DNA of 64,000 nt from Schizochytrium sp. TIO01 (lineage: Eukaryota; Sar; Bigyra; Thraustochytrida; Thraustochytriidae), in contig SMSO01000006.1 in assembly GCA_004764695.1 (NCBI GenBank), forward strand, positions 910,859-974,858, written 5' to 3'. Below are positions 46 through 27,533 of the stretch, piece by piece. A model generated the notes under the pieces. It worked only from the letters and a program-made list of their open reading frames with translations. It was not told where the DNA came from and did no database searches. A program made the translations under genes and the position numbers. The stretch's first letter is position 1. Each line of letters opens with the position of its first letter.

Positions 46-3000
46 GGCCGTCGCTGGCAAAGAGGCCTCCCTCGTGCTCTCTGTGGTTTCTCCTGTCCGT
101 TTGGGAGGCATGCTTAGGCTCTGCGGCGCGGCGGCTGTCCCGGCGGGCGGTTTTGCGCGAGACCCCCACGCATAAAAGCAGGTTGCGCCCCTTGTGGCAA
201 TGCCGGGAGGTTACTCCTGTTACGCCCAATAGGGCGGGTGTGTTTGGGGAAGCGGTTCGAGTCCCAGGGCGTGCCGTGGGAAAGGCGTCGAGACTGCGCG
301 CACTCTGAGGCAGTTCCCGACAGGGGCACTTCATGTAGGTGGGGTGTCCTGGTCGATAATGAGCAGCGGAACGCGTGAGGCTGGAAACAGAGCAACGAAA
401 AGCAGGCCTGAGCTGTCAGCAAGTGTAACACGCGGTTGAGTCCGGAACCGGGTCAACATGCTCTGGAATTCATCTGCAACCCCATTTCTAAATCCTTCTT
501 TTTATTTTCTTTTTTTTTTTTCCCTTTCTATTTCCTTCTTTCGTTTCCTGCTTCTGTGGTTCCTTGCTCTATGCGGAAACCGCATAGCGCTTTCGGATGG
601 AGAGCCACGGCTTCGTTTTGGTTTTTCTTTGGCTTGCCGACGAAGTTGGCACATCATATGAGGGCATCGGGGTGCTGGCGATGCGAAGGAATTCGAGGCT
701 CGGGTAGGTGTAGTATCTAAGTGTTTGTTTATCTCTTTTGCAGATGGAAATGGCGTTTGATTGCTTGAGGGTATTGAAAATGAGGGTGTATAGAACATGG
801 GGAGAAGAAGTGCTGTAGATAGGTGGTGTGCTTTATTTATTTTTCTTTGTAGATTAGCGGAAGGGATGAGAGCAGATGCCTCTCTGTGAACTGATGCCCC
901 ATATTGGTAGGTATTCACTCAAGGAAAGACACTTCCGATTGAAAAGCTATGTATTATCAACCAGCACAAACCCTTCGGGGGCTCCTGTCTCACCGAATGC
1001 GTTGGTAGTGGGCGTCCTGGAAGCACTTAGATCACGTTGAACAAGATGAATTGATCATAACTCTCCCTTTGTGCACATGAATTTATTTTAGGTTTTACGC
1101 GCAATTCCATCTTGAGAGGCAAGTTTTTAAAAACTGAAAATAAGACATGTATCATGAGGGAGCGAAGTTTTGGAGAAGTGAAGTATCGGCTTTTTCGAAT
1201 GTAAAATTCCCATAGGAAAATCCTGCTTTCCTATGGATAGATGAATTTTTGGCATGTATAATTTGAGGATGATGCCCAAGCCACACGACTTCTGAGAAGT
1301 ATTTGACTTCCAGGCGCTGTTCAACAAAATGCAAGTGTTCGGCAAGTTCCTAATTCTAAACGAAACCTTCAATTTAGTTCTTTGCTTTATAAAGAAGGTT
1401 TTATAAAAGCTTTTCAATATTCTGGTCGTACTGTGGACATCGCATATTTGGAATGAACAGAATTTGGGCATCACGGAAGGCTAATCACTGACCAGCTGGA
1501 GAATGTCTGGGTGGAAAGATCTCCAGTCGAAGGAACATATAGACAAGACATTGCTAGAAATGTTTACGTCCAATTGTAAGTCCTCGAAGAATTAGGACTT
1601 AGGGTTCATATAAAATTAGAACTAGAGAACTAGAGAACTAGATGCGTGGTTGCGAACCCAAGAAAGCCAAGAGCTGAAGGCTGACAGATGCATTCAATTT
1701 GAATATTATGAAATTTGGGTCGACGATGAAGGAGGCAAACTACCACTTCGTATTTATCTAATCTAGACCAAACTTTTCTCAGTCTCCGCGTTATAAAATG
1801 AGCCAGTCTGCTTGCAAGTGTAGCACATCGCTAGCTCTAAAAGCCCAAAGTCAATTAAGCCATCTTCAAGCCTCCCATTCTTGTTTTCGCTATTGATGAG
1901 TTTTATGCTTTAGCACTGGGGAGATGAAGGCAAGGTGTTTGGTGAGCATGGCGCGATGGCGCGATGGCTAAAGTAGGCAATGATAGAGTCTTTTGAAGCT
2001 TCTAACCTTGTAAATGAATACCAAGGTGGCTTGATTCATGCTTCATTTAGTAGACCATAAAACAATTTGATGTCTAGTACTCATAACTGAGGAGTTCAGG
2101 TAAAAGCAGATGCTCGACGACTACTCATTCGGACTTTCTCCTGACATTAATTTTCAAATCTGTAGTGGGGTTTTAGCTGATGTGTTCCCTTCGGCTTTAA
2201 ATCTTCGGAATCTAATTGTCTACTTAATTTCACTTCCTTGAAGACTTATAATATTGTGGCAAGGGATGGTCTAAAGGTTAAGCAAAATTATGAACGCATT
2301 GTATAATTCACCAGCCCATATATGGCTCATGCAGAAGCAAAGCAGGGCCTAATATCAGATTGAGGCGCAAAGGGGATAACTCAAAAGCAAACTTACGAAG
2401 CTGAGACTGTTAAACAAGCACCTTTGCTCCCTCAAGTAGATTAATCAACTTGATGTATCAGTCCTATTTGTAGAGTTGGAACAGGGTACATTATCTTTGC
2501 AACAATTTTCCTAACACAGCAACTCAACCGCCGACCGACTTCAGTTGTAATTATGCTAGTTTTCAAGGTATAGGTTTGCAGACTTTGTACATAGCTATGT
2601 TTATCCGATAAGTATATTGCTTTCGAGAGTCTCAAGGAGAAAAACATGCAATTGATCTACAAAATAGATGTACTTTCCCAAAAGGACCCCTCAAAAGTTG
2701 TTTTAAGGGGAGTTAGTGTTCATTTAGAGGCACATATTTCATTATCATCAGTTGTTTGAAGTGCCAAGAGCTCCCCATACCCTACCAAAAGAAAAACGAT
2801 CAAGGTTATAGCTTGAATAATATATTGTTCACTTATGCTTAGTATAGCAATGAGTCATTGAAGTTTAGGCTTGGTAGTATGCTAGCGCCCTTCGACTAAA
2901 TGTAGAGGTGGATGAATGTGTTGCACGTCATATCGATATATATACACATCTATTGAAATCAATTGTTGGGTGTATATGTACACATATAACACGCACAGAG

Positions 3001-9788: not shown

Positions 9789-10520
9789 GACACCGCTGGA
9801 GACAGACCCGGGTCCCGCGCCCTCCCGCCCCGCCCTGCCTGGAGAGAGCAGCAGCGACTGCCTGCGAGAGAGGCCGCCCCCTTCCTGCGACGGTCGCACT
9901 CCGTGGTTCTTGTAGGAAAGAAAGCTCTGGCCTGGCAGCCGCGGGCCTGGCAGGACTGGACGCAGATCCAAACGCGGCTCCTCGTGCACGAGGAGTTGCA
10001 GCGGGGCAAGGTGCTCCGTAGACTGTTGTAGGGCCGGGGTTCATACAGCGAACGGCGAATCAGGGACCCGCGCTGGCGTTAGCTTGGGAAGGGTCGACTT
10101 GCTTCGGTCTGGGGAAGGAAGGGTACGTGCGACGCCTCGCGCAAGTATTCTCTGTCTTTTGCGGCGGTGCTGTGCTCGTTGACGTCCTTGGTGGTTGCTT
10201 TTTACTCGATTGGTGGACTTTGCTTGGCGCCGTCTTAGAGGTCCATCTATCTGTACCTGACTGTATCGATCTCTCCGAATAGACAAGGAAGTATAGATCT
10301 GTTTGATTTGAGCTCGCAAAAACCTGCAACTAACCCCCGGGAACTTGCGAGCGTTATACGATCGAGCGAGCTGTAAAGATTTACTAGAAGAATCTGGTGA
10401 CAAAGATTATTATTTACAGAACTTGGGATAAGCCAACTGTTGGGCATATAACTGAGTGAATAATTAGGTGGTCCAGAGACCCGAACTGTATACGCTAGAA
10501 TAGTATACCTTGGTTGAGGT

Positions 10521-12677
10521 ATGCCGAGCACAGAAATCCAGGCAAAGACATTGGAGGTTAGGGAAGCCGGCGGTGCTGTGGAAGCTTCGGCGGGGACTGC
10601 AATTAAGAAGGCACGAACTCACGAGAACGAACCAGGTTCTCCCGAATCTGCAGAAACCTGGGCTCAAGAAGCCGAGGCCAGGGCTTCAGGATCCAGATCT
10701 AACGCACCTTCGCATAGAGTTCACAAAGAAGCGAAGCATCAAGACTTTGTACAACAGAGTGGCACAGGAACTACGTCGTCAACTGCATCATCTCCGTTTA
10801 CATCAGCAGCTTCTTCCTCGTCGTTGACGTCACAGGGACCTCCATCGGCCATCAGTGAACTTGGCAAGACTTCAAGTGCCAAGAAGCATCCTCATTCAGT
10901 AAAAACCGCTGCAGGGTCACTATCAGCATCCTCGTTTGCATCTTGTGCTGCTAGCCTGTCAAAAAAACATCCCATCGAGGAAGAAAATAAAACCGAAAAC
11001 GAAGGCGAGAAGACTACACCTTCCGCTACGCCAAGATCAGGCAATATGAACGCAACTAGCACATCTAGTCACATCGCAGAGCATGCTGCAACTCAAGAGG
11101 CTCCTGCAACACCCTCGTCACATTCTTCACGAAGCGAATCAGCAGTTGCCACACCCGCTCCTGGCGCATTTGGTCTCAGGCTCTCGTCCTTTATTGAGGA
11201 CTCCTTTGAGAACTGGAAAGTTGGGGATCGTTACAATGTGATTAAGATTCTTGGTCATGGAAGCTACGGACAAGTTGCTGAAGCCTTTGATACGCAAGAC
11301 AAGATTCGTGTCGCTATCAAGTGTATCCACAATGTATTTGATCAAGAAATTGATACAAAGCGTATTCTGCGGGAAGTGTACATTCTGCGCCACCTCAAAC
11401 ACAAAAACGTTATTCGTCTCTTAAACATTGTTACCCCTCCGGAGGACCGTGAAAACTTCAATGAGATCTACCTTGTCTTTGAGTTTGTTGACACTGACCT
11501 TCATAAGCTCATCAATAGTCCTCAGTATCTCACTATTGAGCACGTGCGTACCTTTTTATACCAAATGCTATGTGCGCTCAAGTACATTCACTCATCTCTT
11601 GTGATTCATCGCGATATTAAACCTGCTAATATTCTCATCAGCGAGGATTGTGCACTCAAGGTCTGTGATTTTGGCCTGGCGCGCGTGGTACCTCCGAGCC
11701 GTTTCGTAGGTGACGCTGCGACGGCAATGGCGAGACAGGCCGAAAAAACCGCGCGTGCACGTAGGAAAAGACCTCGGTCGAGTAGTACGGAGTCCAGCGA
11801 GGTTTCTGACACGGGCGCAACTCCCGGTGAAACTGAATCATCAGGCGTTCCTTCGCGCCCTACCTCGCGACGAAAGACTTCACACTCACCGCACTCGCCA
11901 ACAACGCCTCGTGACGCCGTTGATGGTAATGTAGCTGAAGATGACCTTGCGCAAGACGATCAAGAGGGCGTGAGTAGTGCAGACGGCGAAGGTGAAGGTG
12001 AAGGCAACGGTAGTAACGAAGACAATACGACAACCGGAGGCGAGGAAAATGTCGAAGAACCTCGTCGTCTGCAGAGGCAGCTTACAAAACATGTAGTTAC
12101 CCGCTGGTATCGCCCTCCTGAGCTTATCCTCTTGCAAGAGTACACAAACGCCGTGGATATGTGGTCTGTCGGATGCATTTTTGCTGAGCTTTTGGGCATG
12201 GAAAAAGGGAGCGTGAACTCTTTTAAAGAGCGCACGCCCTTGTTTCCAGGCAAGTCGTGCTTCCCTCTTAGTGCTGAACACGACAAAACATACAAGGACC
12301 GTTTGGACCAGCTCAACGTTATTTTCAGAACCATCGGCACACCTTCAGCAGCTGAAATTGAAGACCTTGGTGAAGTTAAGCACTACCTAGGTCGTCTCCC
12401 ACCAAAGAAGCCGATTGACTTTGCTGTTAAATTTAAGGCCGCCACTGCTGAAGCCCTTGACCTTCTTTCCAAGATGCTCGTTTTTAATCCAAAGACACGA
12501 ATCAGCGTAGATGATGCACTACTTCATCCCTTCTTGCAATCTGTTCGGGATATGGAGGCTGAAGAAGTTGCTCCAGAAGGACTACTCAACAATTTTGACG
12601 TTGTTGAGCTTTCCCGCCACCAGCTCAAGGCCAAACTAATTACCGAGATTAACCGTTATCGCGCGGTGCCAATCTAA
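10521..12677 (+). CDS. atypical MAP kinase, MAP2-like, with T-K-H lip and long activation-loop insert
   Basis: Single-exon Ser/Thr protein kinase of 718 aa in the CMGC/MAPK group. Residues 1 to about 225 are Ser/Thr/Ala-rich and low complexity. The kinase domain follows: glycine loop GHGSYGQV near 244, ATP lysine in AIKCI near 265, catalytic loop HRDIKPAN near 363, DFGLAR near 382, then TRWYRPPELILL. Between DFG and the P+1 segment lies an insert of about 130 residues, basic-Ser-rich then acidic. The activation lip reads LTKHVVTRW (Thr about 522), so the usual TxY tyrosine is histidine. The text after the lip, including CIFAELL, LFPGKSCFPLS and LNVIFRTIGTP, closely matches my knowledge of the MAP2 (TSH-type) kinases of Plasmodium. 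The expected role is cytosolic or nuclear phosphorylation signalling; whether a MAP2K activates it is unclear. The insert has no stop and reads as coding, so I do not treat it as an intron. Confidence 0.92.
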   Translation: MPSTEIQAKTLEVREAGGAVEASAGTAIKKARTHENEPGSPESAETWAQEAEARASGSRSNAPSHRVHKEAKHQDFVQQSGTGTTSSTASSPFTSAASSSSLTSQGPPSAISELGKTSSAKKHPHSVKTAAGSLSASSFASCAASLSKKHPIEEENKTENEGEKTTPSATPRSGNMNATSTSSHIAEHAATQEAPATPSSHSSRSESAVATPAPGAFGLRLSSFIEDSFENWKVGDRYNVIKILGHGSYGQVAEAFDTQDKIRVAIKCIHNVFDQEIDTKRILREVYILRHLKHKNVIRLLNIVTPPEDRENFNEIYLVFEFVDTDLHKLINSPQYLTIEHVRTFLYQMLCALKYIHSSLVIHRDIKPANILISEDCALKVCDFGLARVVPPSRFVGDAATAMARQAEKTARARRKRPRSSSTESSEVSDTGATPGETESSGVPSRPTSRRKTSHSPHSPTTPRDAVDGNVAEDDLAQDDQEGVSSADGEGEGEGNGSNEDNTTTGGEENVEEPRRLQRQLTKHVVTRWYRPPELILLQEYTNAVDMWSVGCIFAELLGMEKGSVNSFKERTPLFPGKSCFPLSAEHDKTYKDRLDQLNVIFRTIGTPSAAEIEDLGEVKHYLGRLPPKKPIDFAVKFKAATAEALDLLSKMLVFNPKTRISVDDALLHPFLQSVRDMEAEEVAPEGLLNNFDVVELSRHQLKAKLITEINRYRAVPI

Positions 12678-13484
12678 TGTATCTATCTCTGGCCATGTAC
12701 CTCTCTCTGTTCAAACCTCACGGAAACACAAGTAAGACGTTCTTCTTTCAACTTTTAATTTTCTAATATAAGACACATTTCTGTGATTTGTAAGATTTTG
12801 GCTCCTATTGCTTTCTTTTCTCATCACTTTTCTCACTCCTTCCAAGAATGCAATCTTCAAAGCTGCTTCGACGAGGTAGTACTCTCTACTATACCCTGAA
12901 AATTATTACCAACCACATATGTTTTTATTTTGCTTATATACAATATCTATTGCATAGTTATCGATAGCTCCCCGACCTTCTCAATTCTCAGAAATTGGTA
13001 GTAGGTACTAGAGAATGCAAAACGTATATTCTTGTTTGAGGACCTTCATTTCACAAACACAACTTAATTTAAAGGCCCCCATCGACAACACAATCTTAAC
13101 TCTAATTCATGCACAGCTCAATAACTTGACCCACGCGATTACAAATTTTCCTATCGCGAAACCCATTAAACATTGATCTTACAGCTCCTATTTGTTATGC
13201 AACCGTATCTTTGTTCGTTATCTTGCAAGAATTTGCAAATAAGATGTAACGAGAAGTAATGCGCTCTTGTAAGTTGGTCATCACCTGAAGCTTTGCAATA
13301 CCTCCTCGCAGGAGCAGCGCGGGTGCTGCTGCCCCTCGCCCTTCGCGGATATATCGTCGCTAGATTCATCAATCTCTTCAGCGGCGTCCTTTTTTGCAAG
13401 CTTTGCCGCGTTCGCCAAGGTCTATAAGCTGCGGGAGGTTTGCCTGATTTCCAGCAGACCCGCTTCTCCTTTGAACCCGTGACC
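12678..13484. other. intergenic spacer between the MAP kinase and ABC transporter genes
   Basis: AT-rich 3' flank of the kinase gene and 5' flank of the transporter gene. I see no further coding or structured element. The minus-strand frames near 13166-13597 are shadows of the ABC leader. Confidence 0.6.
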
Positions 13485-16235
13485 ATGCTTGGCTGGAGCA
13501 GCCTCCGCACGTCCTCTTGCCTCGTAGGGGGCGTAGGCGGTGGGTCATCGTCTTCTGTGGCACGCTCTGTGCTACGCGAGGCGGTTCCCTTAAGCAAGAA
13601 GTCGTCTACATCGTCCTCATTGGCCTCATTCTCGAAATCCTCACCTTGCTCACCATGGCCTTCTCCAGCCTCAATGCGCCTTGCGGCTGCGCCGTTCTCC
13701 TCGCGGGCTTTTATTGCTCCTAATAGCGCTTGGCGTCATCTCCTCCAGCTGCTTCCGCGTCATGACCGTCGCCTGCTGGTTGCCGGAGGGTCTCTTGCGC
13801 TCCTCGGATTTGCCATGGCGGCGCCATCAATGACCATTTGCGAAGCGGAGCCTCGAACAAGTGTCCTCCGTCTCCACGGGGCCAGGAACGGGGACCTCAG
13901 GGGTATTGTTACTGGTTATGATAGCCCTGAGGCTGCCCCGAACGGGTCTCCTGACGGTAAGAAAGCTGCAAAGGAAGTCGAGAATGACGAGGGTAATGAT
14001 GAGAACAAGGACGAGGATGGCAAAGATGTAGACGAAGAGGCGGACGAAGACGCTGGAACAAAGAAGAAGAAAAAGGGTAAGAAGGAAAGTGAAGCGAAGA
14101 ACTCTGCGAGTGAGGATCGGAAACGATGGGCATTGCTATTGTCTCTTATGGCGAAGGATAAATGGTACTACCTGCTGGCGGCGGTCTCGTCGCTGCTAAG
14201 CTCTTTGGCAGCATCGGCCCAAGGAAGGGTTGTAGGCAAACTGTTTGATGCCATGGGAGGGAAGGAGTTTGAGAACCTCGTTCAGCCGCTTCAGCACTTG
14301 CTTGGATTGTTTCTGTCGCAAGCAGCGCTGTCTTTTGTGTCGTCATTTGCACTGGCAGTCGCTACTACGGAGTTTGGCAGACGCTTGAGAGTTATGTTTT
14401 ATGAATCTACTCTGCGTAAGGATATTGAAAAATTTGATGACTCCCGCACTGGAGAGATTACGCATCAGCTTACACAGGACATCGGATCGCTCCAGACGGC
14501 GGTACGCACGGCGTTCTCTAGAGGTGTAGAGGGTGTGACCTCTATAATCAGTGGCAGTATTTACCTGTACATGGCCTCCCCCAAGCTGGCCCTTGCAATG
14601 TTCTCCATCCTTCCAGTGATGAGTGGCGCAGCCCACGTTCTTGGTGTACTCTTGCGCGGGCTCTCAGATCGCATTCGCCGGGCAAGCAACCGTGCCACGG
14701 GTGTTGCCAACGAGGCACTGAGCGCTATTCACACTGTACGTTCCTTTGGCAGCGAGGATCGCGAGCTTGAGCGTTACAGCGACGAGCTTCAGACCGTCTC
14801 CGACCTTAAGCGTACGATGGCTCTCACGGCAGGCGGGTTCTACTCTCTTCTTCATCTTGGTATCAACTTGATCACATTGCTTATTTGTGGTTACGGTGGC
14901 CAGCTAGTGACGAATGGAGAGCTTACACGCGGTGGAATTGCTGCGATTGTCACTCAAGTGCAAATCTTGGAGCGCTCCATGGCTCGCCTTAGTATTGTCT
15001 CTGCTCAATTAGTCAAGGCGTTCCGCTCTTCGGAGCACATCTTCGACGCCATTCATGATATCCCTAAGGTTAACACTGCCGCTGGCGGACTTGGGCTCAT
15101 GCCAAATTTAAGTGATGTACATGGTGATGTATCCTTTCGTGGTGTAACCTTCGCTTATCCTTCGCGTCCGGAAATCACCGTGCTTGACAACTTCAGCCTC
15201 GATGTGCACAGTGGTCAAGGTAAGTATCTGTTCTCTGTTCCTAGCATTATGTTCTCATTTCTGAAAAGCACTGCAAGTATTGTGGAAAGGCAGGAAAAGG
15301 AGCATGGAGCAATTTAAGGCAGGATAGTTAGGATACAATATACATTGATGCAAGAGCGTAACTAACACGAAATACTAACATGGGCCATTAATGTTGCTGT
15401 AATTGTTACGTCGAATTCCTTATGAATGTAGTCGTCGCGTTGGTTGGTGCGAGCGGTTCCGGAAAAAGCACAATCGGTGCGCTCCTGTAAGTTTGTTTTA
15501 ATCTTATACAATTGTTCATCATGCATGCAGGCGAGCATGAGAAATTGTCGTGGTGGTAAGCTTGAAAAACTCACAAGTTTAACTGATTGCCCCAATTTGT
15601 GCATTTTGTTGTATAAATATAATTTATTGACTGCTCCCATAAACAGAAAACGATTCTATGATGTGGCGGGGGGACAGGTCACTATCGATGGTATTGATTT
15701 GCGCGATTTGGACCCTAAGGCGCTGCACAAAATCGTTGGAGTAGTCTCACAAGAGCCTACCTTGTTTGGCACCACCATTAAGGAGAACATCATGTACGGT
15801 CAGCCTGACGCAACTATGGACGATGTTATTGAAGCAGCCAAGGCAGCAAATGCCCACAACTTCATTATGGAATTTCCGGAAGGATATGACACCGAGCTCG
15901 GTGAGCGTGGCGTTCTTCTTTCTGGTGGCCAGAAACAGCGAATTGCAATTGCTCGCGCCATTATTCAGGATCCCTCAACTCTCATTCTTGATGAAGCAAC
16001 CTCTGCTTTAGATACGGAGTCAGAGCGTGTGGTCCAAGCTGCGCTCGACAAGTTGCTGCAGGATAAGAGGCGCACTACGATCATCATTGCCCACCGCCTC
16101 ACCACAATCCGAGATGCTGATGTCATTGTGGTTCTGGACAAAGGAAAGATCGTAGAAATGGGCTCACATGACGAACTTTTGCGCCGAAAGGGTGCTTACG
16201 CCCGTCTGTACCAAGTGCAGAAATCATCTGTCTAA
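13485..16235 (+). CDS. ABCB-type half-transporter, probably mitochondrial; three exons
   Basis: Spliced CDS: 13485-15219, 15432-15486, 15647-16235 (2379 nt, 792 aa). The donors are GTAAGT and the acceptors TGTAG and AACAG; phases agree at both junctions. The first 100 or so residues are Ser/Arg/Ala-rich and poor in acids, like a mitochondrial leader. A Lys/Glu/Asp-rich stretch lies at about 161-207, and the transmembrane domain at about 214-520 includes the ABCB signature [18 protein letters not shown]. The nucleotide-binding domain has Walker [10 protein letters not shown] (exon 2), Q-loop VSQEPTLFG, signature LSGGQKQR near 689, Walker B LILDEATS near 709 and H-loop AHRL near 745. It is a complete TMD-NBD half-transporter that should dimerise, resembling ABCB8/ABCB10/TAP. 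The substrate cannot be read from sequence. I chose ATG 13485 because the frame upstream of it has only a TTG. Confidence 0.93.
15432..15486 (+). other. 55-nt micro-exon carrying the Walker A motif of the ABC gene
   Basis: Bounded by TGTAG before and GTAAGT after. It joins phase 1 to phase 2, completes [19 protein letters not shown], and continues into KRFYDVAGG in exon 3. Skipping it would remove the ATP-binding loop and shift the frame. Confidence 0.9.
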
Positions 16236-18840: not shown

Positions 18841-21735
18841 TTATTCCAATCTAAATCCGGTGCCGACGATATCTGGTGTTAGTAGGGGTAAGAGTTGTGC
18901 TCCTAGAATGCTGGGAAGGCTTTTGTCTTGAATATTTTTATGCCAGTACTCACGCAGACGCTCCGCGCGTAGCAACCGCCATGCCTCGCGAACTTGCTCA
19001 AATGAATCAGGATAAAATGGGTCTTTCCCAAGTTTTCTGGAGCAGGTTGCTACATGCCTGTGGCACGCGTCACTATCCTCTGAGCAATAACCCAAACACC
19101 AAGCGCAAAAGTTTTGCCCGCATGCCGTATTGCCACATTTCACAGCACAGCACCCATCAAAGGTATCGAAGCAGGCATTGCAGCTCGGACAATATGCATT
19201 CAATATTTTCTCCTGTATGTACTGCAAATGTCGCTGTGCGTCAAGCGCCAGGCCATCCAGCTGTAGAATTTCTGCCATGCGTCTCTGGATTACTTGCTCA
19301 GCATGAATGGCAGCTCCTTCTTCTGCCTTCATCTTCGCAATGAGCAAAAGATGGTTCAAAGCCTTAGGCGCAAGATGAGTAATTGCTTGACCTGTGATTC
19401 TTCCATCACATCCAAGCGTCATGCAGACCATTGTTCCATCAGCATCCACAGTTATAGAGGGGTGCGGTTGTGCAGCAGCCTCTACTGAGCGAACAATACA
19501 ATCTCGGCAGATGAAGTGCCCTTTCTCGCAGCTTGTGCCTTCACAGAGAGGGATTTCCTCGATACACACAAGACACTTCTGAACAGGAACCTCAGGAACT
19601 CCAAATGCTTCGTGCTGGAGTGCTTCTCGAGCGCTCATACGTTGCTTCGGGTTTGGGGCTTTAAGTTTCTTGATAAGGTCCTGCATTGCACTATCTGGCT
19701 GAGAATACAGTTCTTCTAGGACTACACCCACAGAGTACATATCCATCGGTGTTTCGAACCTATCTACTGGTCTACTTTGTAATTCAGGAGCAGCATATCG
19801 AGGTGTTGCGTAAAGAGATGTAAAAGTTGCGGTGCAATCTGCAGTTTTTATACCGTCGAAATCGCCCAGCAAGGGAGTTCCGTTGCTCGAGAGGAATATA
19901 TTTTCTGGCTTGATGTCACAGTGCACGATGTCATGCGAATGTAAGTCCGCCACGCCAACAAGTAAGCCAATGGCAAGTCGGTCACGAGCTGCTTTGTCTT
20001 CGTGAGGATATTTCTCAATCCATTCGGCTAGGCTGCCCTGCTCATAGAAAGGCATAACAATGCAGCCACGCGGCACTCCGTGCGTGGTGTCTACGAAAGC
20101 ACCAATAATTCGGATCACATGGTGAGAAAATACTTTGCCTAGATTTGCTACATTCGTGTAGAACGTCTTGGCGTGGCTTGGGTGTCCCAATTGGAACTGT
20201 TTCAGAACTAGAGTCTTGCCATTACTATCTAAAACCTTTTGCACCGTCTTGCCACCTCTCGATGCGAGGAGGTCACCAATAGGTTGGAAATCCGTAATCT
20301 GCACGTTTACCAGCCAGAGATCCGAGCTAGCCACCTCAAACACACCCTCCGCGCTTACATGTATTCTTCCTAGCCAGGCTTGATCTTTCAGCAGCTCTGG
20401 ATAATACTCTTGCGCATGCTGCAGAGTTTCAGCAAGCTTGTGACGAAACGCTTTACTTAGTTCTATAGGGGTCCCTTGGGAGAGGATCTCCTCTTGTTCT
20501 GCAACCTCATCTCTGTAAAATGCTCTCTTCTTTTCTGTACTTGCAGCCTGAAGGCTATCCTTAGCTCTTTTTAAGCCTTCCATCGCACGTCGTGACCTGT
20601 CTAGCTTTTCATAGATCAGTTCAAGGTTCGTAACGTCTGGCTGGTTTGAGCCTAAAAGCACGTACTCGTGTATCTCCGAAAGTTCTTCTGGTGAAAGCCT
20701 TCTAGTAAGTTTGTTGGACTTGCTACTTTCGGTAAAGTTTTCTACACGCTGGAGTGTTTCGCTGATATCGTAAAGTATTTTAGACACGGGAACACTAAAG
20801 GTGTCTGATTTCAACACTTCGAGCTCCTCTTGAAGAGAATTTTGCAGCTCAGAGAGCTCAAATTCCAGCTTTGCAGCCTTTCCAGGTCTTCTGAGGGCAA
20901 TCCAGAATACATGGCCAAGATTCAACTCAGTTGCTCGCGAGATAACGCTCTCAACAGCTCGTTCGCTTCGTTCTCCAATGTTGTTTAGATGTCCTTCTTG
21001 GTTCATTGTGTACTCTTCAATGCATTTCTCAGCCTCATGGACAAGTTCTTGGCTATGCTCTAAGTCGTCTGCACATGACCCTTCTGTGACTGATGCATCA
21101 CTTGTGTCTAGATCTTCTATCAAGCTTACAAGCCTTTCTTTGAATTTGCAAACGAAATCTTCATCACTTTCGCAATGCTTTGCATGAAGCCACGGATACA
21201 CGTCTTGCAAGAGTGATCGTAGACGCTCCCTTTCGGCATCTCGCTTCTGAACGAGATCATGCAAGCCACCGGGCGGGCTTGCACGAATCTGGACTTGTAA
21301 GGCATCTAAGCGTTCTTTGGAAATTTGGATGTCACCAGACACCTGTCGCAACTTCACTTGGCCAAAGTAGCCCTGGATGACCGGTTCTGTGAAATCCTTG
21401 AGCAAACCGATAGCGGTCTGCAGGAAACTGCCTCTGGTCTCGCCGAGACCCCCGCGCAAGTCGAAGACCTCCTTCGCAAGTTGGACCACATCAGCAAAAC
21501 TCACGCTGGCGGTACCTGGCCTGTCCCTGAAGCAGGCAGACAAACAAACGAACAGGAATGGGTGAGTGTCGGAATTTGAGTTTGAAAGAGAAAGAGAGGC
21601 CGATTGAGCGAAGACGCCAGCAACGGCAGCAGCAACAGCAGCAATAGCAACAACCAAAACAACAACAGCAAGTAATGAGCAAGTTAGGATCCCATTTTTC
21701 AACGCCACAACTTTTGAAGCAAGCCACGAATTCAT
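18841..21735 (-). CDS. protein kinase fused to RBR-type (RING/IBR) ubiquitin ligase module
   Basis: Open frame of 964 codons. Residues about 90-460 are charged and helical, likely coiled coil. The kinase domain covers about 480-705: VLKQF lysine near 512, HCDIKPEN near 604, DFDG (instead of DFG) near 625, and APE near 649. Next comes a RING1-like set, CLVCIEEI..CEKGHFICRDC, from about 722, and a RING2/IBR-like CPSCNACF..GCCAVKCGNTACGQNFCAWC near 850. It likely phosphorylates a partner and transfers ubiquitin. The first 69 residues may not be coding: TGCCTGCTTCAG at 21527 is a strong acceptor, and a GTAAGT donor at 21792 matches it in phase 2 (266-nt intron). Splicing would drop a Val/Ala-rich hydrophobic stretch and add the upstream exon. 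If unspliced, that stretch would be a membrane anchor starting at ATG 21735. A fusion with the LRR gene upstream is possible. Confidence 0.85.
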   Translation of the reverse strand: MNSWLASKVVALKNGILTCSLLAVVVLVVAIAAVAAAVAGVFAQSASLSLSNSNSDTHPFLFVCLSACFRDRPGTASVSFADVVQLAKEVFDLRGGLGETRGSFLQTAIGLLKDFTEPVIQGYFGQVKLRQVSGDIQISKERLDALQVQIRASPPGGLHDLVQKRDAERERLRSLLQDVYPWLHAKHCESDEDFVCKFKERLVSLIEDLDTSDASVTEGSCADDLEHSQELVHEAEKCIEEYTMNQEGHLNNIGERSERAVESVISRATELNLGHVFWIALRRPGKAAKLEFELSELQNSLQEELEVLKSDTFSVPVSKILYDISETLQRVENFTESSKSNKLTRRLSPEELSEIHEYVLLGSNQPDVTNLELIYEKLDRSRRAMEGLKRAKDSLQAASTEKKRAFYRDEVAEQEEILSQGTPIELSKAFRHKLAETLQHAQEYYPELLKDQAWLGRIHVSAEGVFEVASSDLWLVNVQITDFQPIGDLLASRGGKTVQKVLDSNGKTLVLKQFQLGHPSHAKTFYTNVANLGKVFSHHVIRIIGAFVDTTHGVPRGCIVMPFYEQGSLAEWIEKYPHEDKAARDRLAIGLLVGVADLHSHDIVHCDIKPENIFLSSNGTPLLGDFDGIKTADCTATFTSLYATPRYAAPELQSRPVDRFETPMDMYSVGVVLEELYSQPDSAMQDLIKKLKAPNPKQRMSAREALQHEAFGVPEVPVQKCLVCIEEIPLCEGTSCEKGHFICRDCIVRSVEAAAQPHPSITVDADGTMVCMTLGCDGRITGQAITHLAPKALNHLLLIAKMKAEEGAAIHAEQVIQRRMAEILQLDGLALDAQRHLQYIQEKILNAYCPSCNACFDTFDGCCAVKCGNTACGQNFCAWCLGYCSEDSDACHRHVATCSRKLGKDPFYPDSFEQVREAWRLLRAERLREYWHKNIQDKSLPSILGAQLLPLLTPDIVGTGFRLE

Positions 21736-21792: not shown

Positions 21793-22034
21793 GAAGATCC
21801 ATCAGCAGCGCAAGGCTCCACAACGCGCCCAGCTCCACCAACGTTATCATGCTCGCTCTCGGGCTCTGCAGAAGGCTCGCTCGCAGGGTCTCCCGAGAAA
21901 CAGGAATCGGCTGAGGAGTCAATGTCCTCTTCGGGAGCACACACCTTTGCAAACAGTTCTTTGGGGCTTAAACCACGATAAACACCTTCCAAAATCAGAA
22001 CTGTCTCAGAGGAATAGAGAAAACCCAAGAGCAC
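21793..22034 (-). CDS. probable upstream exon of the kinase-RBR gene
   Basis: An open stretch on the minus strand translates to a short hydrophobic start, then LSPKELFAKVCAPEEDIDSS and an acidic Ser/Glu-rich tail. It ends exactly at a GTAAGT donor (21792) in phase 2. That phase matches both candidate acceptors of the kinase frame, TGCTTCAG at 21527 and TTTTAG just before 21735. It contains no Met and has an in-frame stop just upstream, so it must be an internal exon. The 5' border is unclear: CAG at about 22035 would need phase 1, and an AAG acceptor at 21967 (exon from 21966) fits the phase-2 donor of the last LRR exon at 22154. Confidence 0.55.
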
Positions 22035-22154: not shown

Positions 22155-25100
22155 TAAATTTTAACAGAATCGCGTGCTTTGTGAAGAGACTTCGCGATGG
22201 CCTTGGCGCCCTCAGTGCCAATGTTGGTGTTGGAAATACTGTGTGTGCTCAAGAAAAGAGACAATACATTTTCATCAGTCAGCGAGTTAGTGAGTGAGTG
22301 CGTCAGTGAGTTAGTGAGTGAGTGCGTCAGTGAATTCCATCCACGGAAGAAGTCTTCTTGCTTTGCTTTTCTCTTAGCGTTGTGGGTTTTGAGTTGTTTC
22401 TCCACTTTTACAACAGTGCAATGCTGAGCTCATTCCAGTTCTTCTCCTCTATTATTCAATCACCTGATTGTTCACTATTTGAAACTGAGTTCTGCAAATT
22501 AAGAATCAGCTGCAGAGAATGAAACTGCAGAGAATGAAAAGAAGAAAACAGAGATGTGATCTTTCTGTGGATCAAACGTACTACAATGATTGAAGGTTCA
22601 CGCATTTCTCCAGTGCCTTGGCGACGGAGATGGCGCCCTCAGTGCCAATGTTGTTGTTGTCAAGACTGTGTGTGCTCAAGAAAAGAGACAATACATTTTC
22701 ATTTCATCAGTCAGTGAGTGAGTGCGTCAGTGAGTTAGTGAGTGAATGCGTCAGTGAATTCCATCCACGGAAGAAGTCTTCTTGCTTTGCTTTTCTCTTA
22801 GCGTTGTGGGTTTTGAGTTGTTTCTCCACTTTTACAACAGTGCAATGGTGTGCTCATTCCAGTTCTTCTCCTCTATTATTCAATCACCTGATTGTTCACT
22901 ATTTGAAACTGAGTTCTGCAAATTAAGAATCAGCTGCAGAGAATGAAACTGCAGAGAATGAAAAGAAGAAAACAGAGATGTGATCTTTCTGTGGATCAAA
23001 CGTACGACAATGATTGAAGGTTCACGCATTTCTCCAGTGCCTTCGCGACGGAGATGGCGCCCTCAGTGCCAATGTTGTTGTTTCAAGACTGTGTGTGCTC
23101 AAGAAAAGAGACAATACATTTTCATTTTCATCAGTCAGTGAGTGAGTGCGTCAGTGAGTTAGTGAGTGAATGCGTCAGTGAATTCCATCCACGGAAGAAG
23201 TCTTCTTGCTTTGCTTTTCTCTTAGCGTTGTGGGTTTTGAGTTGTTTCTCCACTTTTACAACAGTGCAATGGTGTGCTCATTCCAGTTCTTCTCCTCTAT
23301 TATTCAATCACCTGATTGTTCACTATTTGAAACTGAGTTCTGCAAATTAAGAATCAGCTGCAGAGAATGAAACTGCAGAGAATGAAAAGAAGAAAACAGA
23401 GATGTGATCTTTCTGTGGATCAAACGTACTATAATGATTGAAGGTTCACGCATTTCTCCAGTGCCTTGGCGAAAGCTTCGGAACAATCAATTTTGTTGTT
23501 GGAAAGACTGTGTGTGCTCAAGAAAAGAGACAATACATTTTCATTTTCATCAGTCAGTGAGTGAGTGCGTCAGTGAGTTAGTGAGTGAATGCGTCAGTGA
23601 ATTCCATCCACGGAAGAAGTCTTCTTGCTTTGCTTTTCTCTTAGCGTTGTGGGTTTTGAGTTGTTTCTCCACTTTTACAACAGTGCAATGGTGTGCTCAT
23701 TCCAGTTCTTCTCCTCTATTATTCAATCACCTGATTGTTCACTATTTGAAACTGAGTTCTGCAAATTAAGAATCAGCTGCAGAGAATGAAACTGCAGAGA
23801 ATGAAAAGAAGAAAACAGAGATGTGATCTTTCTGTGGATCAAACGTACTATAATGTTTGAAGGTTCACGCATTTCTCCAGTGCCTTCGCGACGGAGATGG
23901 CGCCCTCAGTGCCAATGTTGTTGTTTTCAAGACTGTGTGTGCTCAAGAAAAGAGACAATACATTTTCATCAGTCAGTGAGTGAGTGCGTCAGTGAGTTAG
24001 TGAGTGAGTGCGTCAGTGAATTCCATCCACGGAAGAAGTCTTCTTGCTTTGCTTTTCTCTTAGCGTTGTGGGTTTTGAGTTGTTTCTCCACTTTTACAAC
24101 AGTGCAATGGTGTGCTCATTCCAGTTCTTCTCCTCTATTATTCAATCACCTGATTGTTCACTATTTGAAACTGAGTTCTGCAAATTAAGAATCAGCTGCA
24201 GAGAATGAAACTGCAGAGAATGAAAAGAAGAAAACAGAGATGTGATCTTTCTGTGGATCAAACGTACGACAATGATTGAAGGTTCACGCATTTCTCCAGT
24301 GCCTTCGCGACGGAGATGGCGCCCTCAGTGCCAATGTTGTTGTTGGAAAGACTGTGTGTGCTCAAGAAAAGAGACAATACATTTTCATCAGTCAGTGAGT
24401 GAGTGCGTCAGTGAGTTAGTGAGTGAGTGCGTCAGTGAATTCCATCCACGGAAGAAGTCTTCTTGCTTTGCTTTTCTCTTAGCGTTGTGGGTTTTGAGTT
24501 GTTTCTCCACTTTTACAACAGTGCAATGGTGTGCTCATTCCAGTTCTTCTCCTCTATTATTCAATCACCTGATTGTTCACTATTTGAAACTGAGTTCTGC
24601 AAATTAAGAATCAGCTGCAGAGAATGAAACTGCAGAGAATGAAAAGAAGAAAACAGAGATGTGATCTTTCTGTGGATCAAACGTACGACAATGATTGAAG
24701 GTTCACGCATTTCTCCAGTGCCTTCGCGACGGAGATGGCGCCCTCAGTGCCAATGTTGTTGTTGGAAAGACTGTGTGTGCTCAAGAAAAGAGACAATACA
24801 TTTTCATTTTCATCAGTCAGTGAGTGAGTGCGTCAGTGAGTTAGTGAGTGAATGCGTCAGTGAATTCCATCCACGGAAGAAGTCTTCTTGCTTTGCTTTT
24901 CTCTTAGCGTTGTGGGTTTTGAGTTGTTTCTCCACTTTTACAACAGTGCAATGGTGTGCTCATTCCAGTTCTTCTCCTCTATTATTCAATCACCTGATTG
25001 TTCACTATTTGAAACTGAGTTCTGCAAATTAAGAATCAGCTGCAGAGAATGAAACTGCAGAGAATGAAAAGAAGAAAACAGAGATGTGATCTTTCTGTGG

Positions 25101-27533
25101 ATCAAACGTACTATAATGTTTGAAGGTTCACGCATTTCTCCAGTGCCTTCGCGACGGAGATGGCGCCCTCAGTGCCAATGTTGTTGTTGGAAAGACTGTG
25201 TGTGCTCAAGAAAAGAGACAATACATTTTCATTTTCATCAGTCAGTGAGTGAGTGCGTCAGTGAGTTAGTGAGTGAATGCGTCAGTGAATTCCATCCACG
25301 GAAGAAGTCTTCTTGCTTTGCTTTTCTCTTAGCGTTGTGGGTTTTGAGTTGTTTCTCCACTTTTACAACAGTGCAATGGTGTGCTCATTCCAGTTCTTCT
25401 CCTCTATTATTCAATCACCTGATTGTTCACTATTTGAAACTGAGTTCTGCAAATTAAGAATCAGCTGCAGAGAATGAAACTGCAGAGAATGAAAAGAAGA
25501 AAACAGAGATGTGATCTTTCTGTGGATCAAACGTACTACAATGATTGAAGGTTCACGCATTTCTCCAGTGCCTTGGCGACGGAGATGGCGCCCTCAGTGC
25601 CAATGTTGTTGTAGGAAAGACTGTGTGTGCTCAAGAAAAGAGACAATACATTTTCATTCAGTCAGTGAGTTAGTGAGTGAGTGCGTCAGTGAGTTAGTGA
25701 GTGAATGCGTCAGTGAATTCCATCCACGGAAGAAGTCTTCTTGCTTTGCTTTTCTCTTAGCGTTGTGGGTTTTGAGTTGTTTCTCCACTTTTACAACAGT
25801 GCAATGGTGTGCTCATTCCAGTTCTTCTCCTCTATTATTCAATCACCTGATTGTTCACTATTTGAAACTGAGTTCTGCAAATTAAGAATCAGCTGCAGAG
25901 AATGAAACTGCAGAGAATGAAAAGAAGAAAACAGAGATGTGATCTTTCTGTGGATCAAACGTACTATAATGTTTGAAGGTTCACGCATTTCTCCAGTGCC
26001 TTCGCGATGGCCTTGGCGCCCTCAGTGCCAATGTTGGTGTTGGAAATACTGTGTGTGCTCAAGAAAAGAGACAATACATTTTCATCAGTCAGCGAGTTAG
26101 TGAGTGAGTGCGTCAGTGAGTTAGTGAGTGAGTGCGTCAGTGAATTCCATCCACGGAAGAAGTCTTCTTGCTTTGCTTTTCTCTTAGCGTTGTGGGTTTT
26201 GAGTTGTTTCTCCACTTTTACAACAGTGCAATGGTGTGCTCATTCCAGTTCTTCTCCTCTATTATTCAATCACCTGATTGTTCACTATTTGAAACTGAGT
26301 TCTGCAAATTAAGAATCAGCTGCAGAGAATGAAACTGCAGAGAATGAAAAGAAGAAAACAGAGATGTGATCTTTCTGTGGATCAAACGTACGACAATGAT
26401 TGAAGGTTCACGCATTTCTCCAGTGCCTTGGCGACGGAGATGGCGCCCTCAGTGCCAATGTTGTTGTAGGAAAGACTGTGTGTGCTCAAGAAAAGAGACA
26501 ATACATTTTCATCAGTCAGTGAGTTAGTGAGTGAGTGCGTCAGTGAGTTAGTGAGTGAATGCGTCAGTGAATTCCATCCACGGAAGAAGTCTTCTTGCTT
26601 TGCTTTTCTCTTAGCGTTGTGGGTTTTGAGTTGTTTCTCCACTTTTACAACAGTGCAATGGTGTGCTCATTCCAGTTCTTCTCCTCTATTATTCAATCAC
26701 CTGATTGTTCACTATTTGAAACTGAGTTCTGCAAATTAAGAATCAGCTGCAGAGAATGAAACTGCAGAGAATGAAAAGAAGAAAACAGAGATGTGATCTT
26801 TCTGTGGATCAAACGTACGACAATGATTGAAGGTTCACGCATTTCTCCAGTGCCTTCGCGACGGAGATGGCGCCCTCAGTGCCAATGTTGTTGTTGGAAA
26901 GACTGTGTGTGCTCAAGAAAAGAGACAATACATTTTCATCAGTCAGTGAGTGAGTGCGTCAGTGAGTTAGTGAGTGAGTGCGTCAGTGAATTCCATCCAC
27001 GGAAGAAGTCTTCTTGCTTTGCTTTTCTCTTAGCGTTGTGGGTTTTGAGTTGTTTCTCCACTTTTACAACAGTGCAATGGTGTGCTCATTCCAGTTCTTC
27101 TCCTCTATTATTCAATCACCTGATTGTTCACTATTTGAAACTGAGTTCTGCAAATTAAGAATCAGCTGCAGAGAATGAAACTGCAGAGAATGAAAAGAAG
27201 AAAACAGAGATGTGATCTTTCTGTGGATCAAACGTACTCTAATGATTGAAGGTTCACGCATTTCTCCAGTGCCTTCGCGACGGAGATGGCGCCCTCAGTG
27301 CCAATGTTGTTGTTGAAAAGACTATTTGTGTTTTGTATGTTGTAGAAAATGAGTAAGTACGCCATCTTCAAGTCACTATTACCATTCCAAAGCTGTTGCT
27401 AAAACCTTGCTTTACATTTTGAATCACATTGAGAACGCCGTGTCGCGATCTGTCGATTCATTCCGCCATGGCCGACTTACTATATCGTCGTGGTATCTTT
27501 GCTGATGTCTCCAATGCTATTTGCCTTGGTCAT
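22155..27533 (-). CDS. LRR protein gene in which every 28-residue repeat is its own exon
   Basis: Exon 1 is 27533-27481 (ATG, 17 codons plus TA, donor GTAAGT). Thirteen LRR exons follow: 27321-27238, 26902-26819, 26475-26392, 26048-25965, 25620-25537, 25195-25112, 24770-24687, 24351-24268, 23932-23849, 23507-23430, 23088-23006, 22665-22582 and 22238-22155. Eleven are 84 nt (28 codons, phase 2 at both ends); the tenth is 78 nt and the eleventh 83 nt. The consensus LSNNNIGTEGAISVAKALEK plus CVNLQSL is the ribonuclease-inhibitor/NLR-type LRR, which forms a curved protein-binding scaffold. Acceptors read CACACAG or ACAAATAG. Array donors are GTACGT, while the first and last exons have GTAAGT. No signal peptide is visible, so it is probably cytosolic. 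The last exon either ends at TAG (after SVKI) or splices on towards the kinase-RBR gene. The 83-nt exon breaks the frame unless skipped or miscalled. Confidence 0.8.
23006..23088 (-). pseudogene. LRR exon with 1-nt deletion
   Basis: This exon is 83 nt. The stretch ttgttgtttcaagact has three Ts where the related unit at 23932 has four. On the minus strand the frame then leaves the LRR register and meets TGA before the exon ends. The neighbouring exons are all phase 2, so skipping this exon would keep the frame. It is a decayed exon, an alternatively skipped exon, or a homopolymer sequencing error. Confidence 0.75.
23430..23507 (-). other. divergent 26-residue LRR exon
   Basis: 78 nt, in frame. 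It reads LSNNKIDCSEAFAKALEK and then the common end CVNLQSL. The middle (about 23469-23495) is unrelated to the standard NIGTEGAISVA text, while both flanking introns are the standard ones. The change is confined to the exon. Confidence 0.85.

What the first reader, a model, noticed from the sequence alone, without database searches (positions are those of the whole stretch)
22155..27533. One exon per leucine-rich repeat: a modular LRR gene
Thirteen consecutive exons each encode exactly one LRR. Eleven are 84 nt and all but one keep phase 2 at both ends. Any subset of exons can therefore be joined without a frame change. This would allow LRR number to vary by splicing or by unequal crossing-over, a plausible way to diversify a recognition surface. 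Mammalian RNase-inhibitor and NLRP genes pair two LRRs per exon of about 171 nt; a single-repeat exon array with interchangeable introns is unusual.
Basis: partly seen in the sequence, partly recalled or inferred. Interest (0 to 1): 0.9.

Follow-up and report, generated by a model that had tools for sequence, protein, structure and literature searches.

The report
Modular, hypervariable LRR-kinase gene family
The window holds one member of a large gene family in a single-celled marine-type protist, in which strings of one-repeat exons with highly variable contact residues are joined to a protein kinase, probably a set of diversified sensors built the way some algal and animal immune receptors are.

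Summary
On the minus strand, 13 consecutive exons each encode one LRR of about 28 residues; 11 are 84 nt, one is 78, one is 83 (frame-breaking as assembled). The 17 arrays examined all use 84-nt, phase-2 exons, with 2 to at least 16 LRRs.

One LRR per 84-nt exon is not unusual: human NOD/NLRC genes do it, and brown algal ROCO (72 nt) and Tetrahymena (90 nt) genes share the plan.

What is striking is the variation. In six young arrays, introns differ by 2-5% between units, but about half of the sites in four concave-face codons (2, 3, 26, 28) differ, while the exon core barely varies; the window array shows this more weakly. The variable blocks show no detectable linkage to each other or to flanking introns. 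A recent gene duplicate has no change there, against targeted hypermutation. Best reading: intracellular sensor kinases diversified by recombination among LRR units plus diversifying selection. Splicing, function and strain variation are untested.

The parts
27481..27533 (-). exon 1, 17 codons plus 2 nt, N-terminal cap
   Evidence: same length and motif in 13 of 15 arrays searched
27238..27321 (-). LRR exon 1, 84 nt
26819..26902 (-). LRR exon 2, 84 nt
26392..26475 (-). LRR exon 3, 84 nt
25965..26048 (-). LRR exon 4, 84 nt
25537..25620 (-). LRR exon 5, 84 nt
25112..25195 (-). LRR exon 6, 84 nt
24687..24770 (-). LRR exon 7, 84 nt
24268..24351 (-). LRR exon 8, 84 nt
23849..23932 (-). LRR exon 9, 84 nt
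23430..23507 (-). LRR exon 10, 78 nt, in frame
23006..23088 (-). LRR exon 11, 83 nt, breaks the frame as assembled
22582..22665 (-). LRR exon 12, 84 nt
22155..22238 (-). last LRR exon, 84 nt, C-terminal cap with GTAAGT donor
   Evidence: similar cap exon ends the paralogous arrays
21793..21966 (-). linker exon, 174 nt (predicted; acceptor TTTAAG differs from that of the paralogues)
18841..21526 (-). large last exon, 894 codons and stop
19702..20247 (-). protein kinase domain
   Evidence: Pfam Pkinase E 1.9e-29, residues 505-686 of the 972-aa ORF
19042..19575 (-). Cys/His-rich region, possibly RING/RBR-like (tentative)
   Evidence: invariant Cys/His columns in 15 paralogues; weak and partly unspecific hits

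Best explanation
The gene belongs to a family with relatives at 42 places in a thraustochytrid-like genome. It encodes a protein with a short N-terminal cap, a run of ribonuclease-inhibitor-type LRRs, a linker, a further conserved region, a protein kinase and a Cys/His-rich, possibly RBR-like tail; no signal peptide is apparent, so it is probably cytosolic. The LRR horseshoe most likely recognises a ligand (pathogen molecule, self/non-self cue or altered host protein) and the kinase, perhaps with a ubiquitin-ligase-like tail, passes the signal on. Because each LRR sits in its own 84-nt phase-2 exon between long similar introns, units can be duplicated, lost and exchanged within and between loci without breaking the frame. 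Recombination plus diversifying selection on four concave-face residues per repeat would give different binding surfaces on a constant scaffold. Shown here: anatomy, family, hypervariability, similar introns across loci. Inferred: splicing, binding, signalling, immune role, cytosolic location, the kind of organism.
For: Family: 48 matching stretches, merged by hand to 42 places; 20 of the 47 besides the window's own are 60% or more identical over at least 880 residues. Spliced models are open from ATG to stop in 6 of 6 paralogues modelled, 1147-1291 aa. Codons 2, 3, 26, 28 have entropies 2.9-3.3 bits, at most 2.05 elsewhere, over 83 inner exons; their mean exceeds that of the other 24 positions in 11 of 11 arrays (read from the rows). 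In 7 of 11 arrays introns differ by 1-5% between units while nonsynonymous difference at those codons averages 0.27-0.64. In 43 exons of six young arrays: p 0.54 at the four codons, 0.030 at third positions of core codons 9-23. Array introns of those loci differ 0.037-0.054 between loci, 0.028-0.051 within an array, although their kinase exons have dS 0.12-0.28; introns outside the array 0.07-0.15. Blocks within one exon are uncorrelated (Mantel P 0.17, 0.87, 0.12) while codons 25-26 and 27 are linked (r 0.68).
Against: No transcript, protein or strain data. The window copy carries a frame-breaking unit; it may be a pseudogene, or need skipping of that unit, or the assembly may be wrong there. 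8 of the 42 places have stops in the matched part, and five of the 42 are only 32-41% identical. LRR arrays were looked at for 17 of the 42 places only. The tail's RBR likeness is weak: IBR_1 also rings below its cut-off in 11 of 14 prokaryote control genomes. 30 of 47 introns have their nearest neighbour in the same array (permuted mean 7.7), so exchange between loci is partial at most. Unlinked blocks could also come from independent change of each block. In the other four arrays introns differ by 19-47%, so similar introns are not universal, and in the window array the variable codons are less diverse (p N 0.27). Non-significant Mantel tests are weak evidence of absence.
Confidence: 0.6

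Rival explanations
1. Targeted hypermutation: a dedicated mutator (for example of the diversity-generating retroelement kind) rewrites the variable codons.
For: Variation is confined to a few codons beside nearly invariant sequence; 16 of 16 young-clade unit pairs with introns under 1% different differ at 3 or more of 5 variable codons.
Against: In the recent duplicate pair L047/L048 introns differ at 15 of 1021 sites but exons at 0 of 336, variable codons included. Codons are reused: Thr at codon 26 is ACT in 22 of 22 exons. In the window array 3 of 31 unit pairs with introns under 1% different share all five codons.
Confidence: 0.05
2. Tandem duplication with point mutation and positive selection only, no exchange between loci.
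For: Nearest-neighbour introns are in the same array for 30 of 47; repeated multi-exon blocks are visible in L039 and L041; third positions of the exon core (0.030) are not above array introns (0.042 within, 0.046 between), as expected if core and intron share one history.
Against: Array introns are about as alike between loci as within an array, while the kinase exons of the same loci are more diverged. In the seven arrays with similar introns, synonymous difference outside the four codons (0.06-0.15) exceeds intron difference, though this excess comes from codons in or beside the variable blocks.
Confidence: 0.25
3. The window copy is a decaying pseudogene; other copies are functional.
For: Exon 11 (83 nt) shifts the frame to a stop; 8 of 42 family places have stops in the matched part.
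Against: The 894-codon last exon and the other 12 LRR exons are open; a model without exon 11 is open for 1304 aa.
Confidence: 0.35
4. The modular exons serve mainly alternative splicing, giving many isoforms per gene.
For: 108 of 110 LRR exons as placed have a length divisible by three; brown algal ROCO LRR exons are alternatively spliced (PMC11378527, passages).
Against: No RNA evidence here; the variation found is below exon level.
Confidence: 0.25

Closest known systems
Brown algal LRR-ROCO genes (PMC11378527, passages; Zambounis 2012 not held, known from recall and from its citation there)
   Same: one LRR per exon, phase 2, shuffled exons, four selected sites on the concave face, candidate immune receptors in a stramenopile
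   Different: 72-nt exons; ROC-COR GTPase instead of kinase and Cys/His-rich tail
Human NOD/NLRC genes (PMC6642158, abstract and passages)
   Same: one 28-residue LRR per exon, exon border inside the beta-strand region
   Different: LRRs follow a NACHT domain (recalled order); here they precede a kinase and no NACHT is found
Tetrahymena 90-bp-exon LRR genes (PMC6564038, passages)
   Same: uniform LRR exons, phase-2 introns, variable repeat number, recent copies in pericentromeric and subtelomeric regions
   Different: exactly 90 bp; thousands of genes; no kinase-RBR architecture in the passages seen
Ribonuclease-inhibitor-type LRR domains in the PDB
   Same: the spliced LRR domain matches 5irl and 5irm (NOD2, from recall; listed as uncharacterized), 3tsr, 1dfj and others by sequence; the best hits are the repeat proteins 4r5d and 4r6g
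   Different: sequence similarity of the LRR part only

Membership tests
NLR (NOD/NLRC type) | one 28-residue LRR per 84-nt exon | tested here: met
   compared with passages of PMC6642158
NLR (NOD/NLRC type) | NACHT domain in the same gene | tested here: not met
   Pfam scan of the 972-aa ORF shows kinase families only; none of the 7 listed NACHT places overlaps a family place
Brown algal LRR-ROCO | single-LRR phase-2 exons | tested here: met
   (84 nt, not 72)
Brown algal LRR-ROCO | ROC-COR tandem | tested here: not met
   Pfam scan of the 972-aa ORF: kinase families only
Tetrahymena 90-bp LRR genes | exons of exactly 90 bp | tested here: not met
   104 of 110 exons are 84 nt, none is 90
LRR domain | match to LRR_6 over its cut-off | tested here: met
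   LRR_6 E 4.7e-59 on the spliced product
Eukaryotic protein kinase | Pkinase match and HxD motif | tested here: met
   E 1.9e-29; HCDIKPEN seen, the DFG position reads DFD; activity untested
RBR ubiquitin ligase | RING1-IBR-RING2 with catalytic Cys | tested here: inconclusive
   window tail: no Pfam match at E 1; among 15 paralogues Sina_RING in 2 (0.0034) and IBR_2 in 1 (0.81); RNF4 0.0025, Ariadne-1 0.09, parkin 0.73, ARIH1 0.76, but also unrelated chains such as acyl-CoA dehydrogenase 0.049; IBR_1 in three family members below cut-off, as also in 11 of 14 controls
Plant-type LRR receptor kinase | signal peptide and transmembrane segment | tested here: inconclusive
   exon 1 is 17 mostly polar residues and LRRs follow at once (by eye); no topology predictor was run
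Diversity-generating retroelement target | accelerated change at the variable codons | tested here: not met
   0 of 336 exon sites against 15 of 1021 intron sites in one recent duplicate pair

The most novel reading that the evidence does not exclude
A single-celled stramenopile keeps a genome-wide pool of recombining LRR units spread over dozens of sensor-kinase loci; hypervariable codon blocks assort independently even inside one 84-nt exon, so recombination alone (meiotic or even mitotic) renews the repertoire of binding surfaces, a combinatorial receptor system outside multicellular life.
Probability: 0.25. Interest if true: 0.85.

Novelty: new variant of a known kind. Interest (0 to 1): 0.62.

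Why it matters
It joins an exon design known from animal NLRs, brown algae and ciliates to a different effector (kinase plus Cys/His-rich tail) in what looks like a single-celled stramenopile. It offers a case in which introns, exon core and contact residues of the same unit have very different amounts of variation, so that the roles of recombination and selection in building recognition surfaces could be measured by sequencing strains.

Tried and rejected
Targeted mutagenesis was considered and set aside after the duplicate pair. Crossing-over confined to introns was tested by correlating intron thirds with adjacent exons: r 0.142 (P 0.12) for the 5' third with the upstream exon, the others near zero or negative; neither supported nor excluded. 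A viral origin was checked by one IMG/VR scan: one confirmed match, 41 kinase residues at 39%, uninformative. The LRR_6 search of the own genome (17 rows) lists none of these arrays, presumably because single short exons score low. Structure prediction could not be run. A second frame break at the linker exon of the window copy was suspected and withdrawn: in-frame acceptors exist.

Searches of print for this family: (listings; no paper in them is seen to describe it). PMC8917795, a thraustochytrid transcriptome, was seen in one passage, which reports relatively few LRR proteins. Zambounis 2012 is not held.

Choices and dropped rows: non-84-nt, first and last exons are left out of the entropies (83 of 110 exons used). 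One search leaves out last and non-84-nt exons, so L040 counts three units. The six gene models use a linker exon picked by hand among several in-frame candidates, for L040 a hand-set first LRR exon of 96 nt, and for L043 the first of two linker copies; without a linker 4 of 6 stay open. The 42 places are 48 rows minus six that I judged parts or neighbours of another row; the length of contig C24 was not known to the script. The coordinates of LRR exons 7 and 8 repeat those of exon 2, because the three share identical context; searches give the right ones. The line 'sign ... 11 of 11' only counts arrays; my 11 of 11 is read from its rows. On checking, I lowered two confidences slightly (best explanation, and the no-exchange rival raised), because core third positions are no more diverged than array introns and the IBR_1 control is unspecific.
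Full report
Observation. The minus strand of 22155-27533 holds a 17-codon first exon and thirteen LRR exons. Eleven are 84 nt, exon 10 is 78 and exon 11 is 83. The 83-nt unit reads into a stop, so a model that includes it ends at residue 318. The tandem unit is about 419 bp, 12.1 copies at 96% matches.

The gene is longer than reported. Downstream on the same strand lies an 894-codon last exon (18841-21526) with a kinase domain (Pkinase E 1.9e-29) and a Cys/His-rich tail conserved in 15 aligned paralogues. The tail of the window protein has no Pfam match even at E 1; among the 15 members Sina_RING matches 2 (best 0.0034) and IBR_2 matches 1 (0.81). A profile of the tail gives RNF4 at E 0.0025, Ariadne-1 0.092, parkin 0.73 and ARIH1 0.76, but also unrelated chains, such as an acyl-CoA dehydrogenase at 0.049. 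IBR_1 hits three family members at E 0.06-0.22, below its cut-off, and rings below its cut-off in 11 of 14 prokaryote controls too. A pairwise profile alignment to an IBR_1-positive protein of the same genome covers the Rcat-like part with P 2.3e-4, probability 44%; two others gave 27% and 6%. I call it possibly RBR-like and no more.

A family. The window protein finds 48 matching stretches in its own genome of 64.06 Mb, which I merged by hand into 42 places. Of the 47 rows besides its own, 20 are 60% or more identical over at least 880 residues; five of the 42 places are only 32-41% identical, and 8 of the 42 have stops in the match. Eleven of 42 lie within 100 kb of a contig end, against 11.6% expected at most (binomial P 0.007; not corrected for clustering or for near-identical copies). 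LRR arrays were fetched for 16 relatives; with the window 17 arrays were examined. In the first 11, 104 of 110 LRR exons are exactly 84 nt. The two arrays have 8 of 8. In one search, of 22 matches, 20 are 84 nt with a recognised donor, one is cut by the locus edge and one has no donor in the expected place. That is 132 of 140. LRR number runs from 2 to at least 16; L041 and L060 may go on beyond the fetched DNA. Donors in the first 11 arrays are GTACGT (91), GTAAGT (15) and GTATGT (4); 108 of 110 acceptors are AG as the script places them. The array L060, whose units match the profile less well, keeps the same exon length.

Gene models. For six paralogues whose array and kinase loci overlap, splicing exon 1, the LRR exons, a linker exon and the last exon gives an open frame from ATG to stop in 6 of 6 (1147 to 1291 aa; the linker was chosen by hand among in-frame candidates, and the first LRR exon of L040 was set by hand). 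For the window gene, leaving out exon 11 gives 1304 aa. This is a prediction from frames and conservation; no RNA was available. Exon limits are also supported by comparison: most matches outside the window cover only about 100 bp or less, many of them the exon with its splice sites (others are simple-repeat stretches), and the window's introns match those of other arrays only in stretches of about 30 bp.

Variation. Over 83 inner 84-nt exons the entropy is 3.31, 3.26, 2.97 and 2.86 bits at codons 2, 3, 26 and 28; the next is codon 8 with 2.05. In the motif L24 x x L27 x L1 x x N4 these are exposed beta-strand positions of the concave face (placement from general LRR knowledge). In each of 11 arrays the mean of these four exceeds that of the other 24 (rows), although in L045 codons 14 and 20 vary as much as codon 26. 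In seven arrays (window, L036, L037, L040, L042, L043, L044) introns differ on average by 1.0 to 4.7% between units, nonsynonymous difference at the four codons averages 0.27 to 0.64 and synonymous difference in the rest of the exon 0.06 to 0.15. The window array is at the low end (0.27). In the other four arrays introns differ by 19-47% and the contrast is weaker or absent. In 43 exons of six young arrays the four codons differ at 0.54 of sites and core third positions (codons 9-23) at 0.030, no more than the array introns, so the synonymous excess sits in or beside the variable blocks.

Recombination. For six young loci the kinase exons have dS 0.12-0.28, yet array introns differ by only 0.037-0.054 between loci, about as little as within one array (0.028-0.051). 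Outside the array, introns differ by 0.07-0.15, the 5' flank by 0.108 and the 3' flank by 0.373, the last perhaps in part not homologous. Still, 30 of 47 introns find their nearest neighbour in their own array (permuted mean 7.7), so local duplication matters too. Intron similarity does not detectably predict exon similarity (Mantel P 0.12-0.89): 16 of 16 young-clade unit pairs with introns under 1% different differ at three or more of five variable codons; in the window array the 31 such pairs differ at none (3), one (4), two (14) or three (10). The 5' block, codon 8 and the 3' block of one exon are uncorrelated (P 0.17, 0.87, 0.12), while codons 25-26 and 27 (r 0.68), 25-27 and 28 (r 0.29), and 2 and 3 (r 0.14, P 0.002) are linked. 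I read this as short-tract exchange among units plus diversifying selection; independent change of each block is not excluded.

A control against hypermutation. The gene pair L047/L048 has four LRR exons each: 0 of 336 exon sites differ, 15 of 1021 intron sites differ, 24 of 683 sites before and 4 of 1200 after the array. If the variable codons mutated fast on their own, this pair should show it. It is one pair and four exons.

What is known. PMC6642158 (abstract and passages) says that most NOD and NLRC genes have one 28-residue LRR per exon, NLRP genes two. PMC11378527 (passages) describes 72-bp phase-2 LRR exons, shuffling, alternative splicing and four selected concave-face sites in brown algal ROCO genes. 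PMC6564038 (passages) describes 90-bp phase-2 LRR exons in Tetrahymena, the youngest in pericentromeric and subtelomeric regions. The design is thus known; the kinase architecture, the organism group and the measured uncoupling of introns from contact residues are what seems new, as far as the searches named in Tried and rejected show.

Organism. Two PfaD-type domains in ORFs of 2044 and 1647 aa fit a thraustochytrid PUFA synthase (recalled). The name is an inference; rRNA searches failed.

Verdict.

Noticed in passing
window 202-486 (+): Signal recognition particle RNA-like gene, Rfam Metazoa_SRP 92.8 bits.
   Followed up: no
L038, eighth LRR exon: The acceptor reads AA instead of AG, so this unit may be skipped without a frame change; the kinase part of this gene has stops.
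   Followed up: no
L043, between array and kinase: The linker exon appears in two copies.
   Followed up: partly
L040 LRR exons 3 and 5: Both are 99 nt with the same in-frame 15-nt longer start.
   Followed up: no
G000 C31:8490350-8511872: Three family copies and a fragment lie in a local cluster.
   Followed up: no
G000 C24:3555-5816 and C32:2893089-2895350: LRR matches with the same spacing at two places, though the C24 kinase part has stops.
   Followed up: no
L058 (C6:1078500-1083500): Only two LRR exons and no recognisable exon 1 before a family copy; one further LRR exon match lies about 35 kb away at C6:1113715.
   Followed up: no
window 10518-16232 (+): A protein kinase ORF that looks MAPK-like (by eye) and the membrane and ATPase parts of an ABC transporter.
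   Followed up: no
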